Part shown: positions 9,700 through 61,799 of the stretch, one piece after another
Numbering within the stretch: position 1 is the first letter of the stretch
How the letters are laid out: every line of letters starts with the position of its first letter
The notes under the pieces: generated by a model
Database searches by the model: none
What the model saw: the letters and a program-made list of their open reading frames with translations, nothing else
What the model was told of the DNA's origin: nothing
Position numbers and translations under genes: made by a program
NCBI RefSeq assembly: GCF_001553625.1
Contig: NZ_CP014230.1
Location: forward strand, 1,984,001-2,048,000
DNA from: Desulfomicrobium orale DSM 12838
GTDB taxonomy: Bacteria; Desulfobacterota; Desulfovibrionia; Desulfovibrionales; Desulfomicrobiaceae
Direction of reading: 5' to 3'
Length of the DNA stretch: 64,000 nt

Positions 9700-9775
9700 G
9701 TGGGTGTAGCTCAGTTGGCAGAGCACCTGGTTGTGGCCCAGGTTGTCGCGCGTTCAACCCGCGTCACTCACCCCA
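9700..9775 (+). tRNA. tRNA-His (GTG), copy 1
   Basis: 76-nt cloverleaf with encoded CCA. Acceptor GTGGGTG pairs with CACTCAC with one G-U. Anticodon stem CCTGG/CCAGG encloses TTGTGGC, giving anticodon GTG. A G at 9699 opposite the C discriminator supplies the G-1 identity element typical of tRNA-His. The T arm is GCGCG-TTCAACC-CGCGT. Confidence 0.96.
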
Positions 9776-9784
9776 ACTTTCATG

Positions 9785-9860
9785 GTGGGTGTAGCTCAGC
9801 TGGCAGAGCACCTGGTTGTGGCCCAGGTTGTCGCGCGTTCAATCCGCGTCACTCACCCCA
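9785..9860 (+). tRNA. tRNA-His (GTG), copy 2
   Basis: Near-identical tandem copy nine bases after the first, also with encoded CCA and G-1 (9784). It differs in the D loop (TCAGC instead of TCAGT) and in the T loop (TTCAATC instead of TTCAACC). Both copies look functional and are probably cotranscribed. Confidence 0.96.
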
Positions 9861-12820: not shown

Positions 12821-13420
12821 TTACAGGTTTTCCTTGTTCTGAGACAGATACGCAGCCACTCCCTCGGCGTTGGGCTTCATGCCGGTGTCTCCTTTCTGCC
12901 AGCCGGCTGGGCAGACTTCGCCGTGTTTTTCCGTGAACTGGAGCGCGTCCACCAGGCGCAGCATTTCATCCACATTGCGGCCCAGCGGCAGGTTGTTGAC
13001 CACCTGATGCTGTACCACGCCGGAGCGGTCGATGAGGAAGGATGCGCGCAGGGCCACTCCAGCCTCCGGATGCTCGATGCCGTAAGCCTGGGCAATCTCA
13101 TGCTTCACATCCGCCACCATGGTGAAGCCCACGGAGCCGATGCCGCCCTGCTCCACCGGCGTGCTGCGCCATGCCGCGTGGGTGAACTGGGAGTCGATGG
13201 AAACGCCAACCACTTCCACGCCCCGGTCGCGGAATTCCTGCAGGCGACGGTTGTGGGCGATGATTTCCGTGGGGCAGACAAAGGTGAAGTCGAGGGGCCA
13301 GAAGAAAAGAACCACATATTTTCCACGCAGGGAAGAGAGGGTGAATTCCTCGATGCAGCCGGAGGATGTTACGGCCTGGGCGGTGAAATCGGGTGCTGTT
13401 CTGGCGACAAGTATGCTCAT
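12821..13420 (-). CDS. 2-Cys peroxiredoxin (AhpC/Prx1 type)
   Basis: 199-residue thiol peroxidase that reduces hydrogen peroxide and organic peroxides. The peroxidatic cysteine is Cys49 in FTFVCPTE and the resolving cysteine is near 170 in GEVCPAGW, defining the typical dimeric 2-Cys class. The later GGIGSVGF block corresponds to the flexible GGLG region associated with overoxidation sensitivity, here changed to GGIG. A YF-type C-terminal helix motif is not obvious. The ATG at 13420 follows GGAGAATC. A promoter with an overlapping palindrome lies upstream, and the IS element inserted about 75 bases beyond the -35 box. Confidence 0.94.
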   Translation of the reverse strand: MSILVARTAPDFTAQAVTSSGCIEEFTLSSLRGKYVVLFFWPLDFTFVCPTEIIAHNRRLQEFRDRGVEVVGVSIDSQFTHAAWRSTPVEQGGIGSVGFTMVADVKHEIAQAYGIEHPEAGVALRASFLIDRSGVVQHQVVNNLPLGRNVDEMLRLVDALQFTEKHGEVCPAGWQKGDTGMKPNAEGVAAYLSQNKENL

Positions 13421-13459
13421 GATGATTCTCCATGGTTATGGTTTTGGTGTGAAACTTTT

Positions 13460-13491
13460 CAGGAATTATTCCTGATTAAGGATGAGGTCAA
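13460..13491 (-). promoter_or_regulatory. Promoter with overlapping palindrome upstream of the peroxiredoxin
   Basis: On the minus strand TTGACC (13491-13486) is followed after 16-17 bases by ATAATT/TAATTC (13469-13463). The -10 region lies inside the perfect palindrome CAGGAAT-T-ATTCCTG (13460-13474), which could bind a repressor. Predicted 5' leader about 36 bases. A peroxide-responsive regulator is plausible but not shown. Confidence 0.55.
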
Positions 13492-13564
13492 GAAAATTAG
13501 TTCATGAAAACTTTTTGCCTGTAAAGCTCTGCGGACGGAGTTGTTTATTTTTTTGGTTTCACGT

Positions 13565-13618
13565 CATTGCTGTCCGGCTAAGGGATAAGAACATTGCTGT
13601 CCGGCTAAGGGATAAGAA
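13565..13618 (+). repeat. Tandem duplication of the IS left end (2 x 27 bp)
   Basis: Two identical 27-base units, 13565-13591 and 13592-13618, each beginning CATTGCTGTCCGGCTAAGGG. Both contain the terminal inverted repeat. The outer unit abuts the target duplication, so the element moved, or was left, with two left ends. Confidence 0.9.
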
Positions 13619-13692
13619 AAGAGTCCAAAATCTCAGCGATGTGTGGTAAAAGAAATCACCACAACATCTTGCCACACAAGGAGATTCTGGAC

Positions 13693-14838
13693 TTGAGTCA
13701 CCATAATACACTATTCTCCCAGACGCTATCTCTGATTCCCAGACATGTTTTTCAGAAACTCGAAAGACGGCACAAAACCGGGCGCTCGTCGCGTCAATTC
13801 GGTTTCAAGGAGCAGTTCACGGTCATGGCCTTCATCCAGCTTGCCGCAAGACGTTCCATGCGCGATGGCCTGCGCTGCCTTGAGGCTGCGGGAAACCGCC
13901 TGTATCACTGGGGACTGAAAAACGTGGCCCGCTCGACCTTTGCTGACGCGAACAATTCTCGCCCCGTAGGCTTTTTCAAGGATCTGTTCGCCGAGATGTA
14001 CGGCCTGTGCGCCGCAAAAGCCCCGAAGCACAAATTCCGTTTCAAATCCAAATTGTTCAGTCTGGACGCCACCACCATAAAGCTTTGCCTGTCGCTTTTT
14101 CCCTGGGCCTCGTTTCGGCAGGCCAAGGGCGGCGTCAAAGTACATACCTTGCTGGATCACGATGGCCATATCCCGGCTTTCGCAACCGTCACCGACGCCA
14201 AAACCCATGAAAGCCGCATAGCTCAGGCTATGGAGTTGCCCAGGGGCTCCATCGTGGTCTTTGACAAGGGCTTCATCAGCTATCCCTGGTTTCGGATCCT
14301 CGGGGCAAAGGGTGTCTTTTTTGTGACCCGGCTCAAGCGCAACGCCGTTTTCAAACTCCTGGAGCGCCGCCTCGTGAATCGCAAGACCGGCGTTACTTCC
14401 GATCACATCATTGAAGTCTCCAGCCGGGGAAAATCCTTACGCTTGCGCCGTATCGGCTATCGTGACCAGGAAACCGGGAAACACTACGAATTTTTGACCA
14501 ACCATTTCCGGCTTTCGGCGAAAACCATCGCCGACATCTATAAAGACCGCTGGCAAATCGAGCTCTTCTTCAAGGAAATCAAACAAAATTTGCGCATAAA
14601 GACCTTCGTCGGCAACTCGGAAAATGCGGTTCTGATCCAGATTTACACGGCCCTGACGGTTTACCTGCTCCTCGCGTACCAGAAATTCCTCAGCCGTCTC
14701 GGACTCTCCGTACAGCAACTCTTCCAGCTCATTCAACTCAACCTGCTCGGCGAGGCCTCCTTGGATGAACTCCTGAATCCCAGACGACGAAAATTCGATA
14801 ATTCATATAACTTCACACTGTTAGATTGCATCGCTTAG
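13693..14838 (+). CDS. IS4-family transposase (DUF4372 N-terminus, DDE domain)
   Basis: 381 residues if it starts at the TTG at 13693, which has AAGGAG nine bases upstream and gives the (L/M)SHHNTLFSQ N-terminus usual for this family; an ATG at 13639 in the same frame has no ribosome site. The N-terminal DUF4372 region binds DNA. The DDE catalytic residues are seen as DATTIK, VFDKGF and the IS4 signature Y-(2)-R-(3)-E-(6)-K in YKDRWQIELFFKEIK near residues 290-305. No frameshift or stop interrupts it, so it should be active. It ends 13 bases before the element's right end. Confidence 0.93.
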   Translation: MSHHNTLFSQTLSLIPRHVFQKLERRHKTGRSSRQFGFKEQFTVMAFIQLAARRSMRDGLRCLEAAGNRLYHWGLKNVARSTFADANNSRPVGFFKDLFAEMYGLCAAKAPKHKFRFKSKLFSLDATTIKLCLSLFPWASFRQAKGGVKVHTLLDHDGHIPAFATVTDAKTHESRIAQAMELPRGSIVVFDKGFISYPWFRILGAKGVFFVTRLKRNAVFKLLERRLVNRKTGVTSDHIIEVSSRGKSLRLRRIGYRDQETGKHYEFLTNHFRLSAKTIADIYKDRWQIELFFKEIKQNLRIKTFVGNSENAVLIQIYTALTVYLLLAYQKFLSRLGLSVQQLFQLIQLNLLGEASLDELLNPRRRKFDNSYNFTLLDCIA

Positions 14839-14989
14839 CCGGACAGCAATGGTTTCACGTAGTCCCTCGCTTGAATATCCGGTCAATGCCGGGTTCTTCC
14901 GGCTGCGTATGAAAGTGATCCCCACGCGGCCGGGAGTGTCTTGAGGCTGACATTCAATCCGCTAACTTCCTTTCGAGAGGTAATTTACG

Positions 14990-15340
14990 ATGAAAAAATA
15001 TTTTGTTCTCGTGTTTCTGCTGTTCTGCTCTGCTACCGTTTTTGCCGGTTTTTCCGAAAACAGCGGGCAGGGGGGGCAATCGCAGATCAACATGGTTTCT
15101 TCCCTGAAAGGTCTTCCCGACGATACCTATGTCACGCTGGAAGGATATATTGAGAAACAGGTGCGCCGGGAGCACTATATTTTCCGCGATGCCAGCGGAA
15201 AGATTGAAGTGGAGATCGACGACGATGTATGGCGCGGCGTCGACGTCACGCCCAGCGACAAGGTCCGCCTGACCGCCGAGATCGACAAGGACTGGGGCAG
15301 CACGGAAGTCGATGTGAAAAACGTCGTCAAGATTCAGTAA
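14990..15340 (+). CDS. Exported BOF (OB-fold) domain protein, YgiW/YdeI-like
   Basis: 116 residues: a signal peptide ending at VFAGF near residue 20, then a bacterial OB-fold (BOF) domain with LPDDTYVTLEGYIEK, YIFRDASGKIEVEID and a KVRLTAEIDKD segment. Proteins of this family are small periplasmic stress-tolerance factors in enterobacteria. The ATG at 14990 follows GAGAGG. The IS element ends about 130 bases upstream, so its original promoter region may be shortened or replaced. A strong terminator follows, so it is monocistronic. The ligand is unknown. Confidence 0.85.
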   Translation: MKKYFVLVFLLFCSATVFAGFSENSGQGGQSQINMVSSLKGLPDDTYVTLEGYIEKQVRREHYIFRDASGKIEVEIDDDVWRGVDVTPSDKVRLTAEIDKDWGSTEVDVKNVVKIQ

Positions 15341-48308: not shown

Positions 48309-48384
48309 GGGCCCATAGCTCAGTTGGTAGAGCCCCCGGCTCATAACCGGATGGTCCCAGGTTCGACCCCTGGTGGGCCCACCA
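48309..48384 (+). tRNA. tRNA-Met (CAT)
   Basis: 76 nt with encoded CCA. Acceptor GGGCCCA pairs perfectly with TGGGCCC; the anticodon loop CTCATAA gives CAT; T arm CCAGG-TTCGACC-CCTGG. The base pair at the top of the anticodon stem is a C-A mismatch. The first acceptor pair is G-C, so it is an elongator rather than initiator type; a lysidine-modified Ile2 identity is a less likely alternative. Confidence 0.9.
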
Positions 48385-50256: not shown

Positions 50257-50280
50257 TTTTGCTGGCTTACCTTAGGCAAG

Positions 50281-50315
50281 ACGCGGTGTTCCGTTCAGGA
50301 TACCGCGTTTTTTTA
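50281..50315 (+). terminator. Rho-independent terminator after the APC permease
   Basis: Stem ACGCGGT (50281-50287) with ACCGCGT (50302-50308) and an inner stem-loop, followed by a run of seven T. The remaining bases to 50580 hold no gene I can support. Confidence 0.85.
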
Positions 50316-50580
50316 TGGTTTTGGAGTGTTGCTTCATCGGTTTCCGCCGCAATGACTATAATCCGTATTTTGCCTTGCCCAACTCAATGTACTACAATTC
50401 ATGAATCTCGGTTTTCAGTTGCCGGATATTTCGGAAGACGCCGTGGAAGCCTGTTTTTTCCGTTTTGCGGAATGCCTGTTCCGGATTGAAAGGGATCCCA
50501 GACGAAAGAGGAAAGTGCGGCAACTACATGGACAACGCGGCGGTTTTCTGGGATGAGTCCGTCAACGGGAGGGAAAGTGT

Positions 50581-51756
50581 ATGACATACACGGAAAGGAC
50601 GGAAACAGGTTGGTTCAGTCGTTTGGGTGGTGCGCTCAAGGGCATTCTCCTCGGGCTGGTATTCTTTGCCGCGGGCACGGGTCTGCTGTACTGGAACGAG
50701 GGTCGCACCGTGAAGACGGGGGACTCCATTGCTGAAGCCAGGGCGGTGACCATGCCGGTGACGGACATTTCCGGCCTGAACCCCGAGCTCGACGGCAAAG
50801 TCATCCATGCCTCGGGCCGGGCCGAAACTACGGATGTGCTCGTGGATCCGTTTTTTGGCGTCAATGCAACGGCTATCAGGCTTTCGCGGAAAGTGGAGTA
50901 TTACCAATGGGTGGAGACGGCCCGGACCGAAACGCACAAGAAAGTGGGCGGCAGTGAGGAAAAGGTCACCACATACACTTACGCCAAGGAGTGGGTGAGC
51001 ACGCCCGTGGATTCTTCCGTCTTCAGGGACGAAAATTATAAAAACGTCAACTTCGCGTACGGAAATTTCGAGGATACGGAGGACTTCGCTCCCACAGTGA
51101 CCTTCGGGGCATACGTCCTGCCGCAGTTCATGAAGGCGGCCATCACCGGGGCAGTTCCTCTGGAGACAGAACTGTCCGACGAGCGGCGGCTCGCTTTGGA
51201 GAAAAGCCTGAGCCTGAATTCCAGCCATATACGGGCCCAAAACAACATCATTTATCTGGGAGCCAACCCCTTTGTACCCGAAGTGGGTGATGTGCGGGTC
51301 ACCTTCACGCAGGTGCCCCCGGCGGAAGTGTCCATTGTGGCCAAGGTGACGGGCAATACCTTCGAGCCCTTCATCGCATCCAACGGCTATTCCTTCAGCC
51401 GTCTGAGCATGGGCCGGGTCAGCGCGGAAAACATGTTCGCCGGAGCGGAAGAGGGAAACACCGCTCTGGCCTGGGTTCTGCGCGTGGTGGGCGCGCTGAT
51501 CGTCATTGCCGGGCTGGGCATGATTCTGCGGCCTCTTTCGGTTTTGGCGGATGTGGTGCCGTTCTTCGGCAGTCTGGTGGGCATGGGCGCCGGCCTGATC
51601 GCCGGTCTTGTCGGGGCGGCCTGGTCCTGCCTGATCATCGCCGTAGCCTGGGTGCGCTTCCGGCCTCTGCTGGCCGTCAGTCTGGCCGGAGCGGCTGTGG
51701 TGCTGGTGGCTCTTGCGTTCATTGCCCGCAAGGGTGGAAAGCCGGTCAAGGGATAA
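50581..51756 (+). CDS. TMEM43-like membrane protein
   Basis: 391 residues similar to the eukaryotic inner-nuclear-membrane protein TMEM43 (LUMA), whose bacterial relatives are uncharacterised. One helix (about 18-38, ILLGLVFFAAGTGLLYWNEGR, a family signature) precedes a long soluble domain (40-290) with YYQWVETARTET and a YTYAKEW motif, then three or four closely spaced hydrophobic segments (300-385). The RBS ACGGGAGGGAAAG is good. It opens a co-directional run of mostly exported proteins. Confidence 0.85.
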   Translation: MTYTERTETGWFSRLGGALKGILLGLVFFAAGTGLLYWNEGRTVKTGDSIAEARAVTMPVTDISGLNPELDGKVIHASGRAETTDVLVDPFFGVNATAIRLSRKVEYYQWVETARTETHKKVGGSEEKVTTYTYAKEWVSTPVDSSVFRDENYKNVNFAYGNFEDTEDFAPTVTFGAYVLPQFMKAAITGAVPLETELSDERRLALEKSLSLNSSHIRAQNNIIYLGANPFVPEVGDVRVTFTQVPPAEVSIVAKVTGNTFEPFIASNGYSFSRLSMGRVSAENMFAGAEEGNTALAWVLRVVGALIVIAGLGMILRPLSVLADVVPFFGSLVGMGAGLIAGLVGAAWSCLIIAVAWVRFRPLLAVSLAGAAVVLVALAFIARKGGKPVKG

Positions 51757-51760
51757 ATCT

Positions 51761-51797
51761 GGAGAGCATGTCCGTCAGGGGCATGCCTCTTTTTTTC
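51761..51797 (+). terminator. Terminator-like hairpin after the TMEM43 homologue
   Basis: GAG-a-GCATG (51762-51770) pairs with CATGC-CTC (51782-51789) across a bulge, followed by a run of T's to 51796. It may reduce read-through into the SH3-domain genes. Confidence 0.65.
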
Positions 51798-51832
51798 GGT
51801 GCGGTCGGGATGACGGATATATGAGGAGAATC

Positions 51833-53242
51833 ATGGCTTTTTTCATCAGAGCCGCTTTGATGTTGTTCTTCATTTTTCCGCCGGTATGGGCTCAGGCCAT
51901 GACGGGCTGGCGTACGCATGAAAGTCCGGCGTTGCTGCTGGAACGTCCCGAACGTGGAGCGTCCGGCCGGGAGATTATGCTCCCCGAGGAGCTGGATATC
52001 GAGGACGCTGTGCTTTCGAACGGCGGGTATTGGTATAAGGTTACGATTCAGGGGGTTACTGGATGGCTGTTTCAGGACACCCTTTTGGTCCGGACTGGAG
52101 AAAGCGATGAGAACGAGCGGGTAGACACGGTGTATGATGCCGTGGATGAAGCCCGTGGAGCTTTGTTTGCGGGCGAGGGGCCCGGTAAAGCCTGGGTGCG
52201 CCGTCCGGATGTTCCCCTATCCGCCGGTGACGGGCATGCGGGCGGGGTCATTGAAACCTGGGCCGCAAAGGATGCCGTATTTCAAACCATGACTCTGGGG
52301 GACAGGACGCATACTTTGTATTTTGCGGCGGATACGGCCCAGGCTGCCCGGAAATTCCTGGGGAATGCGTTCGTTGGCCTGACCGGAGAGGAGCTGCGAA
52401 GCAGGCTGGGACGGGAAACAAGCCGGGTCGGTTCTTCCCTGCGTTACGAACAGGCGGGTGGGCATACATTTTTGGAATTTCGGATGGAAGACGGGGTGGT
52501 GGCCGAAGTCCAGCATGTCTTCTGGCCGGGCAACTGCATGGAGCTTCCGGCCCGGACCACCCAGTTGCGGCGCTTCCGGGACGCTCCCGGAGAGGACTGG
52601 CCCCGGGCGGCCTGGGTCAAGGGAAAGGATGTCCGGGTGCGGAAAGAGCCATCGCTGATGGCGGAAGTCGTGGGCCGTCTGCATGAGGACGGCCCGCCTC
52701 TTGTCTGGCTGGACGCTATGGACCGGGGCGAGGCGTGGCTCTGGTATCGCGTGGAGTTCGAGACGGCTCCCGGAACATACACCGGGGGCTGGATCTATGG
52801 GCAGTTTCTGGAGCCGTATCGGGACGGCACGACTTACGCGGATTATTTTCTGGATGTGACGGAGCACGAATTCTGGACCAAGACGAATTCCCTCAGGGAG
52901 GGGCTCGGCAAGCCGGTGAAATCCGACGGCTGGATCGAGGAGTGGCCGGGGCTGGCTCTGAGCTACAGCTCCTTTCGTGATGGCGAGACGGAAGAGAGAT
53001 ACCTGTCCGCTGTGAAAATTTCGGACGCGCGGCGGGACTTCGGGGGCATTTGGGTGGGCGACGGCGCGGAGTCCCTGCGGGAACTGGTGGATGGACTGCT
53101 GGCCGACAGATGGAAAGGAGAACGGGAACTGAAGGAAGGGGAGAACGTCTTCACGCATGAGGAGGGTCTTGCTGAGATCGTCCTCGTCTTCAAAAACGGC
53201 GTTCTGTCGTCCATGGAACGGGTGAGCCGGGCGGCGGATTGA
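51833..53242 (+). CDS. Exported SH3/BamE-like multidomain protein
   Basis: About 469 residues. A signal peptide (MAFFIRAALMLFFIFPPVWA) is followed by an SH3-like domain (about 25-85; YWYKVTIQGVTGWLFQDTLLV), a module with GLTGEELRSRLGRET and FLEFRMEDGVVAEVQHVFW resembling a SmpA/BamE fold, a second SH3-like domain (about 255-315; KDVRVRKEPSLMAEVVGRL and GGWIYGQFLE), and a further C-terminal SmpA-like module. I choose the ATG at 51833 because AGGAG lies just upstream; the ATG at 51821 contains that ribosome site. SH3b domains usually bind peptidoglycan. Not otherwise recognised. Confidence 0.75.
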   Translation: MAFFIRAALMLFFIFPPVWAQAMTGWRTHESPALLLERPERGASGREIMLPEELDIEDAVLSNGGYWYKVTIQGVTGWLFQDTLLVRTGESDENERVDTVYDAVDEARGALFAGEGPGKAWVRRPDVPLSAGDGHAGGVIETWAAKDAVFQTMTLGDRTHTLYFAADTAQAARKFLGNAFVGLTGEELRSRLGRETSRVGSSLRYEQAGGHTFLEFRMEDGVVAEVQHVFWPGNCMELPARTTQLRRFRDAPGEDWPRAAWVKGKDVRVRKEPSLMAEVVGRLHEDGPPLVWLDAMDRGEAWLWYRVEFETAPGTYTGGWIYGQFLEPYRDGTTYADYFLDVTEHEFWTKTNSLREGLGKPVKSDGWIEEWPGLALSYSSFRDGETEERYLSAVKISDARRDFGGIWVGDGAESLRELVDGLLADRWKGERELKEGENVFTHEEGLAEIVLVFKNGVLSSMERVSRAAD

Positions 53243-53260
53243 GCCGCGAAGGAGATGGAC

Positions 53261-54025
53261 ATGCGGTATCTGCCCTATGTTGTGGCGCTCATGCTTGTCT
53301 TGATGATGAGTCCGTCTTCCAGTCTGGCCCAGCCCTCCGCCTTGCAGGTGCCGGGCAGCTGGCTGGCCTCTTCCGGGGCGGGGCAGACCGTGCCGGAGTA
53401 TCCCGTACCGGGGCAATGTACCGGAGACGGTGTCCGGCTGCGGGCCGAACCGGCTGCGGAGGCGGAAGTCGTCGGTCATGTGGATCGGGAGGACTTTCTG
53501 TACATTCTGGGCGAGCGGCTGGTGGACGGTGAAACCTGGTACGAGGTGGATCACCCCGCCCGGCCGGAGCAGGCATGGATTTCCGGACGGTATCTGGAGA
53601 CAGACCGTGCAGGCAGCGTCTCTCCGGCGCATGCCCTGGTCTGGCGGGTGGAGCTGGACTTCGGCGCCACCCTGGTCAAGGCCCGCGCCCTGTTCGGAGA
53701 ACCTCTGCGAAGCGAGATCGATATGGTCCGCGTGGAGGCCGCCAGCCAGGAGAACCCCGCCGTGACCTTTGTCTATCCACTCCACACGGCCCGGTATGTG
53801 GACGGCAGACTGTCGAAAGTGCATGTCGTTGCCAAAGGTACGGGCTTCGGACCGCTTCATGTCGGCGATCCGGCGGAGAAGGTTACGGAGTTGCTGGGCG
53901 CGCCCGACGAGGAAAGAGATGGAGGGCTGATCTATCACGGCGATGCCGGGCCTTCGCGCGAGTTCCTTTTCGGACTGAAGGACGGCGTCGTCAGGGAGTT
54001 GCTCTATATTCACTGGTCCGAGTGA
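53261..54025 (+). CDS. Exported SH3/BamE-like protein, shorter relative
   Basis: 254 residues. A signal peptide ending at SSSLAQP (about residue 24), then an SH3-like domain (about 50-110; DGVRLRAEPAAEAEVVGHV, and AWISGRYLE), then a module VGDPAEKVTELLGAPDE... ending EFLFGLKDGVVRELLYIHW that parallels the module in the preceding gene. It starts 18 bases after that gene; the ATG at 53261 is spaced properly from AAGGAG, whereas the ATG at 53255 touches it. Likely a peptidoglycan-associated periplasmic protein. Confidence 0.75.
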   Translation: MRYLPYVVALMLVLMMSPSSSLAQPSALQVPGSWLASSGAGQTVPEYPVPGQCTGDGVRLRAEPAAEAEVVGHVDREDFLYILGERLVDGETWYEVDHPARPEQAWISGRYLETDRAGSVSPAHALVWRVELDFGATLVKARALFGEPLRSEIDMVRVEAASQENPAVTFVYPLHTARYVDGRLSKVHVVAKGTGFGPLHVGDPAEKVTELLGAPDEERDGGLIYHGDAGPSREFLFGLKDGVVRELLYIHWSE

Positions 54026-54051
54026 GTGTGAAGCGTGGGAAGGAAAGATGA

Positions 54052-54379
54052 AGGAAGGACGGATGTCTACGACCAAGGGGCTTCATCGATGGTCAGGACA
54101 CGGCCGAGCGGGACGGCCTGCCGGTACGTCTTCCGACCCAGTATCAGCTTTTTCCCGATGGCCGGGCCGAGGCAATCGTTTACGGGGCATGGGGCCAAGG
54201 CACGTGGCGGATGGAGGGAGACTCCGTGTGGCTTGAGATCGTCTGTGGGGAAGAATTTGTGCCCGAAGTCCTGTCTTTTCGGGACGGTCAGCTCGTCTAC
54301 ACGGATGCGGAGTCGGCGGAGGTCTGGCCCGCGCGCCGATGGCAGCATGGACGCGGACAAGGTGCTGGATGATCTGTAG
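54052..54379 (+). pseudogene. Frameshifted and 5'-truncated relic of an exported protein gene
   Basis: From 54052 one frame reads a protein-like stretch (GFIDGQDTAERDGLPVRL, then YQLFPDGRAEAIVYG, GTWRMEGDSVWLEIVCG and FRDGQLVYTDAESAEVWPA) without any usable start codon, the frame being closed by TGA at 54049. After VWPA near 54330 the natural continuation ADGSMDADKVLDDL lies in the +1 frame, ending at TAG 54377-54379. So at least one frameshift and loss of the signal peptide are needed to explain it. The GTWRMEGD segment recalls lipocalin-like small domains. It lies within the row of related exported proteins. Confidence 0.6.
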
Positions 54380-54461
54380 AACCTTTTGGCCGGGAAATGA
54401 CGGATAATGCGGAAAACATTGTCCGAGAACGGGAAGAAGCCCTTAAATGGCGGAGAGGCGT

Positions 54462-55166
54462 ATGCCGTACAGACGTAAATTGCCGGTTCTGATTTTTCTG
54501 TTGCTGTGCTGGTCCGTACCGGCCCTGTGGGTTCAGGCCGGGCAGCATGTGCCGGTGCCCGACCGGGAGGCCAATGAAACCACCCGGCGCGGCGCGGTGA
54601 CCAACATCACGGTTTTTTTCGAATTGCTGCCGGAGGAATGCTTTTTCGATCCAGCCCCCACGGCCGGACAGCGCAAGGAATTGCTGGACGGCAAGACTGT
54701 GAACGGCCTCAGGATCGGCGTGCGGGATATCCGCAATGGCTACATGAATCTGACCGGGCCTTTTGAAGGCGTGTGGGAGATGTGTTTCTGGAATACCGCG
54801 GACAAAGGGAAGCTGGTGGCCGTCAATGCCCGTTCATGCGGGCCTGTTTGCCGGGCCAGACTTTTTTTCTACCGTCTGGATGCGGACGGCGTACTCCAGT
54901 CCGACCCGGAAGTATGGTCCGCCCTGGAAAGACAGTTCGAACCGGGAGATTTTTACCAGAAGGGCCGACTGGGGCCGCGTGAGCTGGAGGCTCTGAAGAA
55001 TTTGGCCAAGACTGTCGTTTATGACCTGCCGCGTCTGGGGCGCGATATCGTGGCCCGGCGGGACAAAAACGCGCCGCCCGAAAAAGGCGTGCCGGAGATG
55101 CTGATGCGTTCCGATCCGTGCGTTGTTTTTGTCTGGGATGGAATGTCTTTTACCAAAAAGCCGTGA
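54462..55166 (+). CDS. Exported protein of unknown function
   Basis: 234 residues, not recognised. The start at 54462 follows GGAGAGGCGT; a frame start 15 bases upstream is less well spaced. A signal peptide runs to about VQAGQH (residue 27). The mature protein is mostly beta-predicted with several cysteines (ECFF, WEMCFW, ARSCGPVCRA), suggesting disulfides, and a helical ELEALKNLAKTVVYDLPRLG near 175. It is part of the co-directional run of exported proteins; no motif suggests an enzyme. Confidence 0.65.
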   Translation: MPYRRKLPVLIFLLLCWSVPALWVQAGQHVPVPDREANETTRRGAVTNITVFFELLPEECFFDPAPTAGQRKELLDGKTVNGLRIGVRDIRNGYMNLTGPFEGVWEMCFWNTADKGKLVAVNARSCGPVCRARLFFYRLDADGVLQSDPEVWSALERQFEPGDFYQKGRLGPRELEALKNLAKTVVYDLPRLGRDIVARRDKNAPPEKGVPEMLMRSDPCVVFVWDGMSFTKKP

Positions 55167-55223
55167 CATCCACGGGTCTTCGGAATCTGAAAACCGGCGG
55201 TTTATCCGCCACGAGGGGGAGAT

Positions 55224-56093
55224 ATGAGCATCTGTCGCGCCCGCCACACGGGAAAAGGAAATTGCGGAGTGGTATTTTATTGGATTGCGGCCGTCCTGCT
55301 GGTCTTGTGTTGCGGCTGCGCGGGCCGGCAGAACGACTGGCAGGGCTACGACATTCCTCCTGCTCCGGCCGACGCCGGTAAGACGCGGCTCGGAGAAGAA
55401 CAGCTTGAGAGGCGGTCCGGCACTGCCGGAACGGAACTTCGCGGCGGATACGATGCCGACGGCCGGTATGTCGGAAGGTACGACTCCGAAGACCGTGAGG
55501 ACAGCCGCAGCAGCCGGGAGGATATCCGCCGTGATTCCGGCCGGATCCAGGAGAAAACCGGCGGGCTGCCAGTAACCTATCATGAATTCAAGGAGCGTTA
55601 CATGCGCGAGGCCGTCACGCCAGAAGGCGCGGTGAAGCTCTATTTCGACGCGGTGTTTTGCTATATTGATCCGGCTGCCCGCACCGAAGGGGTGAAAATG
55701 CTGCGCTATTGCCTGCGCGAGAAGCGGGACTGGGAGAAAACGGCCTTTTACAGGACTTTCGTCGAACGCATGGAAAACCCGGAATATACGCACATATTCC
55801 GCAGCTTCGCGGCCGGAACGTCCGTAGAGAACGGGTATGCCATGTCGCCGGACAACTACCGGCTGGATATCGCCAAGATATGGGACAAACATCCGTCCGG
55901 AGACCTGCAGGTGATGCTCCGCAGTTCCGGCGCGGACAGCCCCCGGCCCGTCTATATCCGGAAGTATGACGGCCTGTGGTTCATAGCCAACAACGCAGCC
56001 ACATATACGGGAGTGCGCCGTCCTGAGACCGAACGCGACCGGACGGGACATGACGCGGATTATGACGACGTGAATTATCGCAGCGGATACTGA
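55224..56093 (+). CDS. Lipoprotein of unknown function (possibly DUF6935-like)
   Basis: 289 residues. A hydrophobic segment with lipobox LCCGC (about residues 29-33) suggests a lipoprotein with a long n-region. Residues 35-110 are charged and low complexity (DREDSRSSREDIRRDSGR); residues 115-270 form a compact domain with TYHEFKERYMREAVTPEGAVKLYFDAV, GVKMLRYCLREKRDWEKTAFY and a KYDGLWFIANNAATYTGVR end, which resembles a family of unknown function I associate with DUF6935, without certainty. RBS GAGGGGGAG precedes the ATG. Confidence 0.65.
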   Translation: MSICRARHTGKGNCGVVFYWIAAVLLVLCCGCAGRQNDWQGYDIPPAPADAGKTRLGEEQLERRSGTAGTELRGGYDADGRYVGRYDSEDREDSRSSREDIRRDSGRIQEKTGGLPVTYHEFKERYMREAVTPEGAVKLYFDAVFCYIDPAARTEGVKMLRYCLREKRDWEKTAFYRTFVERMENPEYTHIFRSFAAGTSVENGYAMSPDNYRLDIAKIWDKHPSGDLQVMLRSSGADSPRPVYIRKYDGLWFIANNAATYTGVRRPETERDRTGHDADYDDVNYRSGY

Positions 56094-56107
56094 AGGAAAA
56101 AAAACAG

Positions 56108-56863
56108 ATGAAAAGAATTTGTCTCCTTGCTTTGGCTCTGATTCTGGGGGCTTTTCCGGCCTGGGCGGATTCTTTCGTTATCCGGAGCGCGCCGGACGAT
56201 TCCACGCGGAAGGAAGCATACCGGGTCGCGTCTGATGGGACGGAAATCCAGCTGGATGGTGTGAGGGTAGCCCCGGTGGGAATGCCCGGCCAGCCGGTCG
56301 ACGCGCTGCCCAGGTACTTCTGGTTTGCGCCGCAGTCCGGTTCGGGGCCGGATATAGTGCTGGCCGTGCCAGACACGGGAGAACATGTGGCGTTGCGTTT
56401 ACCCGATGCGGATCTCTGCTCCGACATCTGGATTAGTCCGGATGGAAAGAGATTACTGTTGGGCCTGAACACCGCCCCTTTGTCCAGTCTGGCTGTGTAC
56501 GATATGAAGATGGCGCGGGTTTCGCATACTGTGCCGGATGCGGGCTGGCCCGTATGGATAGATGAATCCCGTTTTGCCTGCAGCGCCTTTGATCCGGTCA
56601 GAAACCGGGGCCGCAGGAATACGAGCCCGGTCAGCAACGCCTGGTCTTCCGTGATGTATTGCGAGCTGCATGACGACGGCGGGATGAAGCGGAAAATTCT
56701 GTATCAGGCCATGGAAACCGTCGATTACAATCTGCTGGAGGTGGGTGCGGAAGACGGCGAACTGGTTTTTTTGAAGATCGTCGTGGATTCCCCCGAAGAG
56801 TGGGACGATTCGGATAAATACAAGGTGGAGGCCATCCACGCGCCTTATCCTGCCGCGGAGTGA
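56108..56863 (+). CDS. Exported protein, paralogue of the product of 58845-59570
   Basis: 251 residues. Signal peptide ends at PAWADS (about residue 20). The mature part has repeated beta-hairpins (DIWISPDGKRLLLGLNT, PVWIDESRFACSAFD) reminiscent of a propeller-like or eight-bladed beta protein, and a C-terminal block DYNLLEVGAEDGELVFLKIV with VDSPEEWDDSDKYK. The same C-terminal pattern occurs in the gene at 58845. It starts 14 bases after the lipoprotein gene with AAGGA before the ATG. Function unknown. Confidence 0.68.
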   Translation: MKRICLLALALILGAFPAWADSFVIRSAPDDSTRKEAYRVASDGTEIQLDGVRVAPVGMPGQPVDALPRYFWFAPQSGSGPDIVLAVPDTGEHVALRLPDADLCSDIWISPDGKRLLLGLNTAPLSSLAVYDMKMARVSHTVPDAGWPVWIDESRFACSAFDPVRNRGRRNTSPVSNAWSSVMYCELHDDGGMKRKILYQAMETVDYNLLEVGAEDGELVFLKIVVDSPEEWDDSDKYKVEAIHAPYPAAE

Positions 56864-56965
56864 TGCGGGGCCGGGTGTGGGGGGTGTTCCTTGGAATGCG
56901 GGCGCCGTATGGTGCCGGAACGAATGGTGATGTGAATGGTCAATTGGTTAGCCAGGGGAGGGCAC

Positions 56966-58618
56966 ATGGAATTGAAAAGAAAATATGCAATTTCCGGGTG
57001 GCTGGTCTTGATTTTGACCGCACTGCTTCTGAGCGGGTGTGCGGGGAAACTGGGATGGCGGCAGAAACCCTATGAGCTGACGGTGCTGCATACCAACGAC
57101 GTGCATGGCGGATACGGCGGCCTGACCAAGGAAGGCCACACCTGCTACATGCCCTACTGTGAAGACGGCAAAGGTGGCAGCGTGCGTTTGCAACAGGCCG
57201 TGCGGGCCATCCGGCGCGACATGCCGAACGTGGTGCTGCTGGATGCCGGAGACGAATTTCAGGGCACCCTGTACTCGACCGTGTACAAGGAAGTCATGCC
57301 GCCGGTGATACTGAACAAGATCGGCTACGATGTCTTCGTTCCGGGCAATCACGAGTTCGACTACGGCTGCGAATCCTTTTTCACCTTCGTGCGCAGCCTG
57401 GAAATGCCTCTGGTGGCAGCCAATCTGGTTGTCTCCTCTTCTGGCGAGGACAAGATTCAGCCCTGGGCCATTCTGGAGCGAAATGGCCGGCGCATCGGCG
57501 TGGTCGGTCTGGTGACTACGGAAACGCCGAACATTTCCTCGCCGTGCGGGGACCTGCTGTTCACGGATGAGGAAACGGCTCTGCGCCGGGCCGTGGCGGA
57601 ACTGACGGAGCAGGACGTGGATATCATCATCGCCCTGACCCACACCGGATTTGAGGCGGACAAGAAGCTGGCCCGGTCCGTTTCCGGGGTGGACGTGATC
57701 GTCGGCGGTCACAGTCACACCCTGCTTTCCAATACGCAGCCCAAGGCCGCCGGGCCCTATCCCGCCGTGGAGAAAAGTCCGGACGGCGAGCCGGTGCTGG
57801 TGGTCACGGCCGGAAACGGCGGCACTTTCCTCGGCCGTCTGAATGTGACTTTTGACGGCCGGGGCGTGGCCACACAGTGGGATGGAGACACCATACTGCT
57901 GAACGACGCCTCCTTGATGGCTCTGGGCGCACCCGCTCCTGATACCGATCTGGTGGGGACGATGGAAGAATATTCCGGTCCGGTACAGTCTCTGTTGCGC
58001 AAGAAGCTGGGCCGGATCAACGCGGCGGGCAGAAAGGGCAAGCCTCTGGAGGCCAATATCCAGGATTGCCGGGAGGCGGAATGCCTGAGCGGCAATGTGG
58101 TTGCCGACTCCATCCTGCGTGTGGCTTTCCCCGAGGCCAGGGCCGCGCTCATCAACAGTGGCAGCATGCGCAGTTCCCTGCCCGGCGGCACCGTGACCGT
58201 GGGTGATGTCATGGCCTGCCTGCCGTATCAGAATCCCATCGTCATGGCCGACATGCCCGGTTCGGTGCTTCTGGAGATGCTGGAACACGGTCTGTCCAGA
58301 TATGGCGAAGGGCATGGTTCGTTTCTCCAGACGGCTGGTTTGCGTTTCACCTTTGACAGCCGCAAGGAGCCTGGAAACCGCCTGCTGAAGGTGGAGATCA
58401 GAAACCGCAAGGGGAATTGGCAGAAGGTGAATCCCGAGAAGAGCTACCGTGTGGCGACCCTGAAGTTCCTGGCCGATGGCGGCGACGGCTACACCATGCT
58501 GAAAGGCCTGTCCTGGCTCGAATCCAAGATACTTCTGAATGACGCCGTGCGCATCCATCTGGAAACACATTCTCCGGTCAAAGCCGGAATCGAGAAGCGG
58601 ATCAGGCGCAAGCCTTGA
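56966..58618 (+). CDS. 5'-nucleotidase / UshA-like metallophosphoesterase lipoprotein
   Basis: 550 residues. Lipoprotein signal ending LLLSGCAG (about residue 26). The N-terminal metallophosphoesterase domain carries HTNDVHGG, DAGDEFQG, GNHEFDYG and GGHSHT, the dinuclear metal ligands; the C-terminal 5-nucleotidase domain (about 340-550) has AALINSGSMRSSLPGG and the substrate-binding NPIVMADMPGSVLLEML and FLADGGDGY region. It should dephosphorylate extracellular nucleotides to nucleosides on the cell surface or in the periplasm. The ATG at 56966 follows AGGGGAGGGCAC. Confidence 0.92.
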   Translation: MELKRKYAISGWLVLILTALLLSGCAGKLGWRQKPYELTVLHTNDVHGGYGGLTKEGHTCYMPYCEDGKGGSVRLQQAVRAIRRDMPNVVLLDAGDEFQGTLYSTVYKEVMPPVILNKIGYDVFVPGNHEFDYGCESFFTFVRSLEMPLVAANLVVSSSGEDKIQPWAILERNGRRIGVVGLVTTETPNISSPCGDLLFTDEETALRRAVAELTEQDVDIIIALTHTGFEADKKLARSVSGVDVIVGGHSHTLLSNTQPKAAGPYPAVEKSPDGEPVLVVTAGNGGTFLGRLNVTFDGRGVATQWDGDTILLNDASLMALGAPAPDTDLVGTMEEYSGPVQSLLRKKLGRINAAGRKGKPLEANIQDCREAECLSGNVVADSILRVAFPEARAALINSGSMRSSLPGGTVTVGDVMACLPYQNPIVMADMPGSVLLEMLEHGLSRYGEGHGSFLQTAGLRFTFDSRKEPGNRLLKVEIRNRKGNWQKVNPEKSYRVATLKFLADGGDGYTMLKGLSWLESKILLNDAVRIHLETHSPVKAGIEKRIRRKP

Positions 58619-58844
58619 TGCTGCTGAAAAAGACGGACGCCCGCCGGGGCATGCGGCAATTTCGTCCTGGCCGGAACTGCCGGAGAGTCGGAGACGGAGG
58701 GCTGTCCACGTGGCGGGGAAGCGATTTCAAGTCCGGCAGGGGCTGGGTGAGATCGCTTTCCGCCTTTGGAGCAGGCGATTGGCGGGTTGAAAATTATCTA
58801 TGGCAAACTTGGTGGCATGAAAATTTCGTAGAGGGAGAGGACAC

Positions 58845-59570
58845 ATGCGAATCGTCTGGTGTCTGACGCTGGTGCTGGGGGCGAGTCTGGCCTGGGCCGG
58901 GGATTTTTCGGAATATCGCCTGCGCGCGGTGCAGGAGGACGGCGCTTCCTCCTGCATGCTGGACGGTGTGGAATTGCATGCGGTGGAAGTGCCGCCCAAG
59001 GAAGAGGGCTGGGAGCCGGAGATCTACTTCTGGTTCGAGACCGACCCGGAAAACATGTCCTGCGCCAAGGGGCAGAATCCGAGCGTGCACGTGTTTTCAG
59101 CAGATTTGAAGCCCGTGCTGTCCGTCTGGCTGACGGAAGAGGACAGATATTGCCGCGAATTGTACTTCAATCCGGGTGCGACCCGGGTGGTGATGGAAAC
59201 CGGGACCAGCGCGGTGGGCCAGTATGTTTTGCGGGACGTGCCCTCGGGAGATTCCTTGTTTGAATATTTCGGCCAGGGCGAATGCTTCTGGCTTGGCCCG
59301 CACCGGTTTGTGTTCACCCGTTATGACGATTCTCCTCGCGGCATGCCTGTGGAGGCGGATGGCCGGTTTTCAGTGGAAGTGTACGATCCCGCTGGACCAG
59401 GAGCGTTTTCCGTCAAGGCGGCTACGTCTTTGAGCGATTATACGCTGAAGGATGTGGAGGGAGATGAGATTGTCATTGAGGAACAGTATGTGGACACTCC
59501 CGAGGACTGGAAAGATCTGGAAAAGATAAAGACCCGCGAGATTCGGGTACCTGTTCCCGCAGCGGGCTGA
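58845..59570 (+). CDS. Exported protein, paralogue of the product of 56108-56863
   Basis: 241 residues. Signal peptide ends at LAWAGDF (about residue 18). The mature region repeats the pattern of the upstream paralogue: RELYFNPGATRVVMETGTS, CFWLGPHRFVFTRYDD, DYTLKDVEGDEIVIEEQYV with VDTPEDWKDLEKIK and a PAAG end. The two flank the 5'-nucleotidase gene, so duplication followed by insertion or rearrangement is likely. RBS AGAGGGAGAGG is strong. Function unknown. The 226 bases before it hold no other gene I can support. Confidence 0.68.
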   Translation: MRIVWCLTLVLGASLAWAGDFSEYRLRAVQEDGASSCMLDGVELHAVEVPPKEEGWEPEIYFWFETDPENMSCAKGQNPSVHVFSADLKPVLSVWLTEEDRYCRELYFNPGATRVVMETGTSAVGQYVLRDVPSGDSLFEYFGQGECFWLGPHRFVFTRYDDSPRGMPVEADGRFSVEVYDPAGPGAFSVKAATSLSDYTLKDVEGDEIVIEEQYVDTPEDWKDLEKIKTREIRVPVPAAG

Positions 59571-59792: not shown

Positions 59793-61799
59793 ATGTCCAT
59801 ATCAAAGAAGATTCTTTCTGCATTTTTCTGTGTCATCCTTCTGACCATCATATCCATATGTGTGGTGATCGGGCTTCAGATGCACAAGACATCCATCGAG
59901 GCCTTTTACTCCTCCTCCGCCAAGGAACTGACGCAGATCAGCCGGGCGGTGGATATATTCATGGATTCAGCGTTGAAAATGACCCGCCTCGCCGCCGAAA
60001 TACCTTTGGTCAGAAGCGCTGACGAATCCATTTATTCCTATGTTAATGAAACGGCGGCACTATCTCCGGACAGCGTTACCCAGAGTATTCTGGGGCAGCG
60101 TATGATGAATTATTTCCGGTTGATGGAGAAAGCACATCCGGAGTACGCAGAGGTGTTTCTGGGGACTAAATGGGGCGGCTACGCCACTTCGCGAACGAGT
60201 ACGATCCCTGCGGGATATGATCCCAGACGGCGCGCCTGGTACACACAGGGCATGTCCCGGCCGGGCGAGGTTTCCATTACTCCGGCGTACATGTCCACTA
60301 CGGGTGAGGCCGTGGTCAGCACTGTTTTGCCTGTGATGTCGGAAGACGGCGAAGTGTCGGGATGCCTGGGAATTGATGTGGAACTTGCGATGCTGACCGA
60401 GCTGATCGAGAAATCCCCCGTCGGAGAAACCGGATATGTGATTCTGGTGCAGGACGACGGGACGATCCTGGCCAATCCGCGTCACAAGGAATTTAATCTG
60501 AAAAAGCTGACAGAGACCGGAGTAGCTGCTCTGGCGGCCTTGAACTCCATCAGCGAAGGCGGGATGGAAGTCGATATGGATGGCACCCGGTGGTTTGCGC
60601 AGGTCAAGACCATTGAAGGGCTGAACTGGAAGCTTGTCGGGTTCATCGAGAAAGACGAGGTGTTGCAAAATTTTCATGCCATGCTGGTCAAGATGGCCAT
60701 CATGGGTACCGTACTGGCGGCCGTATTTCTGGGGGTGGGAGGACTTTTCGCCAGAACCATTGCCCGTCCGGTGCGCCGGGCCACTGACATGCTCAGGGAT
60801 GTAGCCGAAGGCGAGGGCGACCTGACCCGCAAGCTTGAAGTGAACACATCTGACGAAATCGGGGAAATGGCGGGTTGGTTCAATACCTTTCTGAATAAGC
60901 TGCGGGTCATCATCCACGAGGTGGTTCAGGATGGCAACGCACTCAGTTCCGCTTCGGAGCGCCTGCATTCCGTATCCAGCGATCTGAGCCGGGGAGTGGA
61001 CAGCGCGGCGGAACAGGTGCGCAACCTGACTCAGGCCGCCCGCGATCTGAACGACAACTTCACCACCGTGGCCGCAGCCATGGAACAGACCACTCAGAAT
61101 ACGAACATGGTGGCGACGGCCACGGAAGAAATGGCCGTGACCATCCGGGAGATTTCCACTAGCACGGAGCGGGCCCGGGCCATTACCGGTCAGGCCATGC
61201 ATGAGGCCGATACCGCAAACAAAGCCGTGGAGTCTCTGGGTGAGGCCGCCAGGGATATCGACAAGGTTACGGCGCTGATCACGGAGATTTCCGCACAGAC
61301 CAATCTGCTGGCTTTAAACGCCACCATTGAGGCCGCCAGAGCCGGAGAGGCTGGCCGGGGATTTGCCGTGGTGGCCAACGAAATCAAGGAACTGGCCGGA
61401 CAGACCGCGTCGGCCACGGAGGAAATCAAACAGCGGATCGCCGGGATTCAGCAGACGTCTCATCTGACCGGCGAGAAGATCCAGTCGATCTACAATGTCA
61501 TCGAGAACGTCAACGAGATCATTTCCGGTGTGGCCACGGCCATCGAGGAACAGTCCGTAGCCACGACAGATATTGCGGACAACGTGTCTCAGGCGTCTCA
61601 GGGATTGCAGGAAGTGAATGTCAATGTCGCCCGCAGTTCCACGGTGATCGCGGAGATATCGGCGGAAATTGAGAATTCCAACGCGGCCACGGAAAGAACG
61701 CGGGTCAGCACGGCCGAGGTGGCCGGAAGCGCCGAGGAACTGCAAAAGTTGGCCGGTCATCTCTTCACGCTGCTTGGTCGTTTCCGCACCGAAGCTTGA
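59793..61799 (+). CDS. Methyl-accepting chemotaxis protein with Cache sensor domain
   Basis: 668 residues. Transmembrane helix 1 (about 10-30), a periplasmic dCache-type domain (about 35-280; [12 protein letters not shown] and [16 protein letters not shown] are typical), transmembrane helix 2 (about 297-320), HAMP (about 322-375) and the cytoplasmic signalling domain with the hairpin tip [35 protein letters not shown] split at residue ~510. No C-terminal CheR tether pentapeptide is evident. The Cache domain should bind a small organic ligand; nucleosides or organic acids cannot be told apart here. The ribosome site is weak. Confidence 0.95.

What the first reader, a model, noticed from the sequence alone, without database searches (positions are those of the whole stretch)
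50581..59570. Co-directional island of uncharacterised envelope proteins ending near a chemoreceptor
Eight intact genes and one relic in a row encode a TMEM43 homologue, SH3/BamE-like exported proteins, an unknown lipoprotein, two paralogous exported proteins and a surface 5'-nucleotidase, followed by a Cache chemoreceptor. Nearly all carry export signals and none has a known role in this order. A coordinated envelope or nucleotide-scavenging system is possible. Gene adjacency and signals are seen; joint function is inference.
Basis: partly seen in the sequence, partly recalled or inferred. Interest (0 to 1): 0.72.

Follow-up and report, generated by a model that had tools for sequence, protein, structure and literature searches.

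The report
TMEM43-centred envelope gene island
A bacterium, probably a Desulfomicrobium from an animal or human host, carries a block of exported proteins, including a surface nucleotide-degrading enzyme and a relative of the human heart-disease protein TMEM43, and the same partners recur together in other phyla, so the block is a real shared gene set of unknown detailed function rather than a chance neighbourhood.

Summary
Eight intact co-directional genes and one gene remnant lie at 50581-59570, followed by a Cache chemoreceptor. The block is not a chance neighbourhood: relatives of the window's own families recur beside TMEM43 elsewhere. 5'-nucleotidases do so in Desulfovibrionales, Bacteroidales and Akkermansia, DUF6935 and P0004-type proteins in Bacteroidales, SH3 proteins in two further genomes. 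None of these families occurs in 0.97 Mb of control stretches. TMEM43 and DUF6935 also co-occur between genomes (15 of 17 DUF6935-bearing Bacteroidaceae have TMEM43, against 19 of 151 overall). Gene order is kept only in a sister species, where six of six genes tested are under purifying selection. The chemoreceptor has orthologues in island-less congeners and does not belong. A terminator-like site follows TMEM43, so one transcript is not shown. Most likely reading: a horizontally shared, host-niche envelope module whose one clear enzyme, a CD73-like lipoprotein 5'-nucleotidase with intact metal motifs, strips phosphate from nucleotides outside the inner membrane, with NTF2-like, SH3 and TMEM43 proteins as envelope partners. 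The scavenging role and the role of TMEM43 are inference. I found no description of this neighbourhood in the papers searched.

The parts
50278..50318 (+). terminator-like stem-loop with T tract after the upstream amino-acid permease; probable upstream limit of the block
   Evidence: pattern match only
50581..51756 (+). TMEM43/LUMA-family membrane protein (391 aa): one N-terminal TM helix, ~225-residue extracytoplasmic domain, C-terminal TM helices
   Evidence: PF07787 1.5e-71; AF2 mean pLDDT 90.6; no PDB relative by sequence or Foldseek
51766..51793 (+). terminator-like stem-loop followed by seven T between TMEM43 and the next gene
   Evidence: 22 such sites found against 9.7 expected in shuffles, so weak
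51821..53242 (+). exported SH3_3 protein (473 aa)
   Evidence: PF08239 9e-10; relatives beside TMEM43 in L002 and L010
53255..54025 (+). exported SH3_3 protein (256 aa), paralogue of the preceding one
   Evidence: PF08239 3.9e-6; BLASTP E 5e-11 to P0002; dN/dS 0.21 against G006
54052..54369 (+). gene remnant: open ~105-codon frame without start or signal peptide; absent from the sister species
   Evidence: no relative among the fetched loci
54447..55166 (+). exported orphan (239 aa; later start 54462 possible); distant relatives beside TMEM43 in Prevotella
   Evidence: reciprocal HMM E 1.8e-6 / 5e-5; dN/dS 0.17
55224..56093 (+). probable lipoprotein with DUF6935 domain, NTF2/cystatin-like fold predicted
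   Evidence: PF22043 1.4e-34; AF2 pLDDT 65.6 overall, domain 66-94; best VIA Z 5-7 mostly NTF2-like chains; dN/dS 0.20
56108..56863 (+). exported orphan (251 aa), paralogue of 58845-59570
   Evidence: BLASTP E 2e-17; among fetched loci found only in this genome and G006; dN/dS 0.21
56966..58618 (+). lipoprotein 5'-nucleotidase (550 aa), CD73-like, metal and substrate motifs intact
   Evidence: PF00149 4.9e-17 and PF02872 1.4e-36; closest solved 2z1a and human CD73; motifs; dN/dS 0.09
58845..59570 (+). exported orphan (241 aa), paralogue of 56108-56863
   Evidence: dN/dS 0.08
59793..61799 (+). dCache chemoreceptor; adjacent but not part of the island
   Evidence: PF02743/PF00672/PF00015; orthologues at 69-70% in island-less congeners

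Best explanation
The block is a horizontally shared, host-niche accessory module of cell-envelope proteins centred on a TMEM43-family inner-membrane protein. Shown: the families keep company with TMEM43 across phyla far beyond chance, and six of six island genes tested are under purifying selection. Inferred: the CD73-like lipoprotein 5'-nucleotidase removes phosphate from nucleotides released by host or microbial cells, giving nucleosides and phosphate. In this species nucleosides could enter through the one Bmp-type transporter; in related Desulfovibrio clusters an exported nucleoside hydrolase could first split them to bases. The NTF2-like DUF6935 lipoprotein and the SH3 proteins would bind ligand or cell wall and hold the enzyme in the envelope, with TMEM43 as membrane scaffold. 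The two exported paralogues would be lineage-specific additions.
For: 5'-nucleotidase lies within ~6 kb of TMEM43 and on the same strand in 18 loci of Desulfovibrionales, Bacteroidales and Akkermansia (Pfam-confirmed examples in each). DUF6935 lies within 10 kb in the window, L005, L016, L017, L026, L030, L036, L037, L040, L041, L052 and L068, and about 12-16 kb away in G057. Control of 0.97 Mb in 60 stretches: zero hits for DUF6935, 5'-nucleotidase, SH3 and P0004 models. Co-occurrence in 151 Bacteroidaceae: TMEM43 19, DUF6935 17, both 15, Fisher 2.8e-15; in 61 Desulfovibrionales 4, 5, both 3, p 0.001. In G000, G005 and G057 the only 5_nucleotid_C gene of the genome is in the TMEM43 cluster. 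Exported nucleoside hydrolase beside TMEM43 in L005 (PF01156 4e-68) and in the same cluster of G057. Island 5'-nucleotidase is not orthologous to the transporter-linked copy of island-less congeners; G005's TMEM43 groups with a Desulfovibrio (100/98) and not with the window's. dN/dS 0.08-0.21.
Against: Gene order and content vary; only the sister species G006 keeps the order, and its contig ends before TMEM43, which was not found in G006 at all. A terminator-like site separates TMEM43 from the rest. No nucleoside hydrolase or CNT transporter in this genome; G005 has neither CNT nor Bmp. Fisher tests ignore relatedness. Most other loci are metagenome-assembled. No biochemical data, and no solved relative of TMEM43 or DUF6935.
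Confidence: 0.45

Rival explanations
1. Accessory-gene hotspot: host-associated bacteria exchange exported-protein genes into the same genomic neighbourhoods, and TMEM43, DUF6935 and the 5'-nucleotidase travel together without acting together.
For: Variable order and content, ankyrin/LRR/NTF2-like exported proteins of many kinds in the same loci, tRNA-Met upstream at 48309-48384, TMEM43 on conjugative plasmids in Roseobacteraceae.
Against: In Bacteroidaceae TMEM43 and DUF6935 co-occur even though most genomes with both hold them on different contigs; TMEM43 meets two deeply separate 5'-nucleotidase groups; strand is nearly always the same. No direct repeat of the tRNA end downstream and no integrase in the block.
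Confidence: 0.3
2. Host modulation: the surface 5'-nucleotidase makes adenosine from host ATP/AMP and dampens immunity, as known for cell-surface nucleotidases of some Gram-positive pathogens (general knowledge); the other proteins place or display it.
For: Closest solved relatives include human CD73; island families present in the small-genome congeners G000, G005 and G006 and in gut taxa; no CNT transporter or nucleoside hydrolase in this genome to use the product.
Against: A Bmp nucleoside-binding protein is encoded; D. piger-type clusters carry a nucleoside hydrolase that would destroy adenosine; surface exposure is not shown.
Confidence: 0.15
3. Phosphate acquisition: the enzyme is kept to release phosphate, with nucleosides as waste.
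For: 5'-nucleotidase activity releases phosphate (general knowledge); no dedicated nucleoside uptake in the block.
Against: No phosphate transporter, Pho-type regulator or other phosphatase in the block; not tested further.
Confidence: 0.07

Closest known systems
TMEM43/LUMA family (PF07787), human TMEM43 and Drosophila CG8111
   Same: Same Pfam family at E 1.5e-71; one N-terminal TM helix, a large loop domain and C-terminal TM helices, as described for the animal proteins (PMC9307560)
   Different: Bacterial membrane rather than ER/nuclear envelope; the gene partners described here have no counterpart in the papers read, which mention bacteria only as carrying homologues
Bacterial nucleotide-scavenging pair: 5'-nucleotidase with CNT nucleoside transporter, as in the island-less congeners G002, G007, G012, G013
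   Same: Extracytoplasmic 5'-nucleotidase as the enzyme
   Different: No CNT transporter in the genome; the island enzyme belongs to another branch of the family; TMEM43, DUF6935 and SH3 partners instead
CD73 / Thermus 5'-nucleotidase (2z1a)
   Same: Both domains over ~480-530 residues, E 1e-78 to 1e-82, catalytic motifs kept
   Different: Lipoprotein of a Gram-negative; activity and substrate untested
NTF2-like/cystatin-like domains (e.g. PBP2a N-terminal domain, NTF2)
   Same: Predicted DUF6935 fold matches many NTF2-like chains at Z 5-7
   Different: Z under 8 and no Foldseek E below 0.6; no sequence relation shown

Membership tests
TMEM43 (PF07787) | full-length match to the family model over its cut-off | tested here: met
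   241 bits against cut-off 23.3, positions 1-250 of 250
TMEM43 (PF07787) | TM helix, large loop domain, C-terminal TM helices | tested here: met
   AF2 model: helix 11-56, mostly beta domain 57-281, helices 282-323, 327-360, 362-385
5'-nucleotidase (UshA/CD73 type) | Metallophos + 5_nucleotid_C domains | tested here: met
   PF00149 and PF02872 over cut-off
5'-nucleotidase (UshA/CD73 type) | metal-binding and substrate motifs | tested here: met
   TNDVH 43, DAGD 93, GNHEFD 127, ALTHTG 223, GGHSH 247, INSGSMR 396, GGDGY 505
5'-nucleotidase (UshA/CD73 type) | hydrolysis of 5'-nucleotides | not testable with these tools
   needs enzyme assay
DUF6935 (PF22043) | match to family model over cut-off | tested here: met
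   119.8 bits against 27
NTF2-like fold | fold match to solved NTF2-like structures | tested here: inconclusive
   VIA Z 5-7 for many NTF2-like chains, all under 8
BamE/SmpA-like | match to a BamE family model | tested here: not met
   no BamE match for P0002 or P0003 in Pfam at E<=1; a distant relation by fold is not excluded
5'-nucleotidase + CNT scavenging pair | adjacent CNT nucleoside transporter | tested here: not met
   PF07662 absent from the genome
single operon | co-transcription of all eight genes | tested here: inconclusive
   terminator-like site after TMEM43, gaps of 421 and 226 bp; no RNA data

The most novel reading that the evidence does not exclude
TMEM43 and the NTF2-like DUF6935 lipoprotein form a dedicated envelope complex, spread across host-associated bacteria of several phyla, that organises extracytoplasmic nucleotide-processing enzymes, and it shows an original biochemical role of the family to which the human cardiomyopathy protein TMEM43 belongs.
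Probability: 0.2. Interest if true: 0.8.

Novelty: new variant of a known kind. Interest (0 to 1): 0.52.

Why it matters
TMEM43 is mutated in a lethal human heart disease and its molecular role remains unclear; the papers read mention bacterial homologues only in passing. A repeated set of bacterial gene partners (5'-nucleotidase, DUF6935, SH3 proteins) gives concrete, testable candidates for what the family does. It also points to an undescribed envelope gene set shared by host-associated bacteria of several phyla.

Tried and rejected
Chemoreceptor as island member: rejected, orthologues occur in congeners without the island. BamE-like label: no Pfam support. tRNA-Met (48309-48384) as integration site: no direct repeat of its end downstream. 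Phage origin of TMEM43: no match in 50,697 phage records. Relic: no relative among fetched loci. Foldseek for TMEM43: nothing below E 0.046. PDB sequence searches for P0002, P0004, P0006: nothing useful. L020 'nucleotidase': is PGA_cap, removed from counts. The Bacteroidales 'nucleoside hydrolase' next to TMEM43 is below the Pfam cut-off (20.5 against 34.2 bits) and is not used as evidence. LRR, LemA and D256 families were picked because they were seen near TMEM43 and are not used as evidence.

Full report
Observation. Window 50581-59570 holds eight intact + strand genes and one remnant. Pfam assigns TMEM43, SH3_3 twice, DUF6935 and the two 5'-nucleotidase domains; three genes have no family. 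The exported orphans 56108-56863 and 58845-59570 are paralogues, as are the two SH3 proteins. The window lies at 1984001-2048000 of a single 2.78-Mb contig. Its size and relatives suggest Desulfomicrobium, perhaps D. orale; this identity is inference only.

Is it a real unit? In a sister genome (G006) the genes P0002 to P0008 are collinear at 92-95% DNA identity on one contig, and dN/dS of the six measurable genes is 0.08-0.21, so they are maintained. The remnant is missing there. TMEM43 lies beyond the G006 contig end and was not found in that genome, so it may be lost or unassembled.

Does the company recur? From TMEM43 alone 54 loci were fetched. Within these and further loci, profile searches with the window's own families gave 5'-nucleotidases in 19 loci (18 beside TMEM43 plus G006; one further hit, L020, is a PGA_cap protein and was dropped), DUF6935 in 14, the SH3 family in 4 and the P0004 family in 8 (counts include the window and G006), all against zero hits in 60 control stretches totalling 0.97 Mb. 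D. piger-type loci L003, L004 and L067 are close relatives and count about once. Families picked because they were seen near TMEM43 (LRR, LemA, D256) are selected and are not used as evidence.

Co-occurrence. TMEM43 is sparse: 4 of 61 related genomes and 19 of 151 Bacteroidaceae over the cut-off. DUF6935 is equally sparse: 5 of 61 and 17 of 151. Both occur together in 3 and 15 genomes. Of those 15, only G087 and G225 have the two genes within 10 kb on one contig, so linkage alone does not explain the co-occurrence; shared ancestry within Prevotella-like lineages may. In the window's genus the island or its parts occur in G000, G005 and G006 (2.3-2.8 Mb; a DUF6935 fragment also in G011, 2.3 Mb) and in none of the congeners of 3.2 Mb and more.

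Origin. The TMEM43 tree places the congener G005 with a goat-cecum Desulfovibrio (100/98) rather than with the window's copy, whose place is unresolved. The island 5'-nucleotidase is not the orthologue of the CNT-linked enzyme of island-less congeners. Both suggest horizontal acquisition. Bacteroidales and Akkermansia clusters use a deeply separate 5'-nucleotidase branch, so TMEM43 was probably paired with such enzymes more than once.

Mechanism. P0007 has a lipobox (LLLSGC), both domains and all motifs checked, and is closest to Thermus 5'-nucleotidase and human CD73. DUF6935 is predicted NTF2-like with modest support. TMEM43 gives a confident model (pLDDT 90.6) without a solved relative. The genome has one Bmp protein for nucleosides but no CNT transporter and no nucleoside hydrolase. 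Related Desulfovibrio clusters carry an exported nucleoside hydrolase. Nucleotide scavenging at the envelope therefore fits best but rests on enzyme families, not data.

Known literature. Papers on TMEM43 mention bacterial homologues only in passing (PMC9307560, PMC12295021); no held paper combines TMEM43 with 'operon' or mentions DUF6935. Subscription papers were not searchable.

Verdict. A genuine, recurrent, apparently undescribed gene neighbourhood with one clear enzyme and several unknown partners; joint function is inferred.

Noticed in passing
L132 6389-9498 and L133 6388-9501: Roseobacteraceae plasmids (one conjugative) carry TMEM43 in a conserved four-gene cassette; its other genes have no Pfam match.
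   Followed up: partly
L003 3745-6681, L005 14572-15900, L067 9938-11257: D. piger-type loci carry near TMEM43 a solute-binding lipoprotein (SBP_bac_8) and, in L003, a membrane LuxR-type regulator with a large extracytoplasmic part.
   Followed up: partly
L003 16405-16968, L066 14809-17475: LemA and DUF2207 genes in the same D. piger-type TMEM43 clusters.
   Followed up: no
G002, G003, G004, G007, G012, G013: In island-less congeners the 5'-nucleotidase lies next to a CNT nucleoside transporter, a classic scavenging pair that the island-bearing genomes lack.
   Followed up: partly
L024 11440-13344: Prevotella gene beside TMEM43 fuses a weak nucleoside-hydrolase-like part to a P-loop kinase-like part.
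   Followed up: no
window 13001-15000: G+C drops to 0.52 with a reversed GC skew at 14-15 kb; not examined.
   Followed up: no
window 9700-9860: Two adjacent tRNA-His genes with the same anticodon.
   Followed up: no
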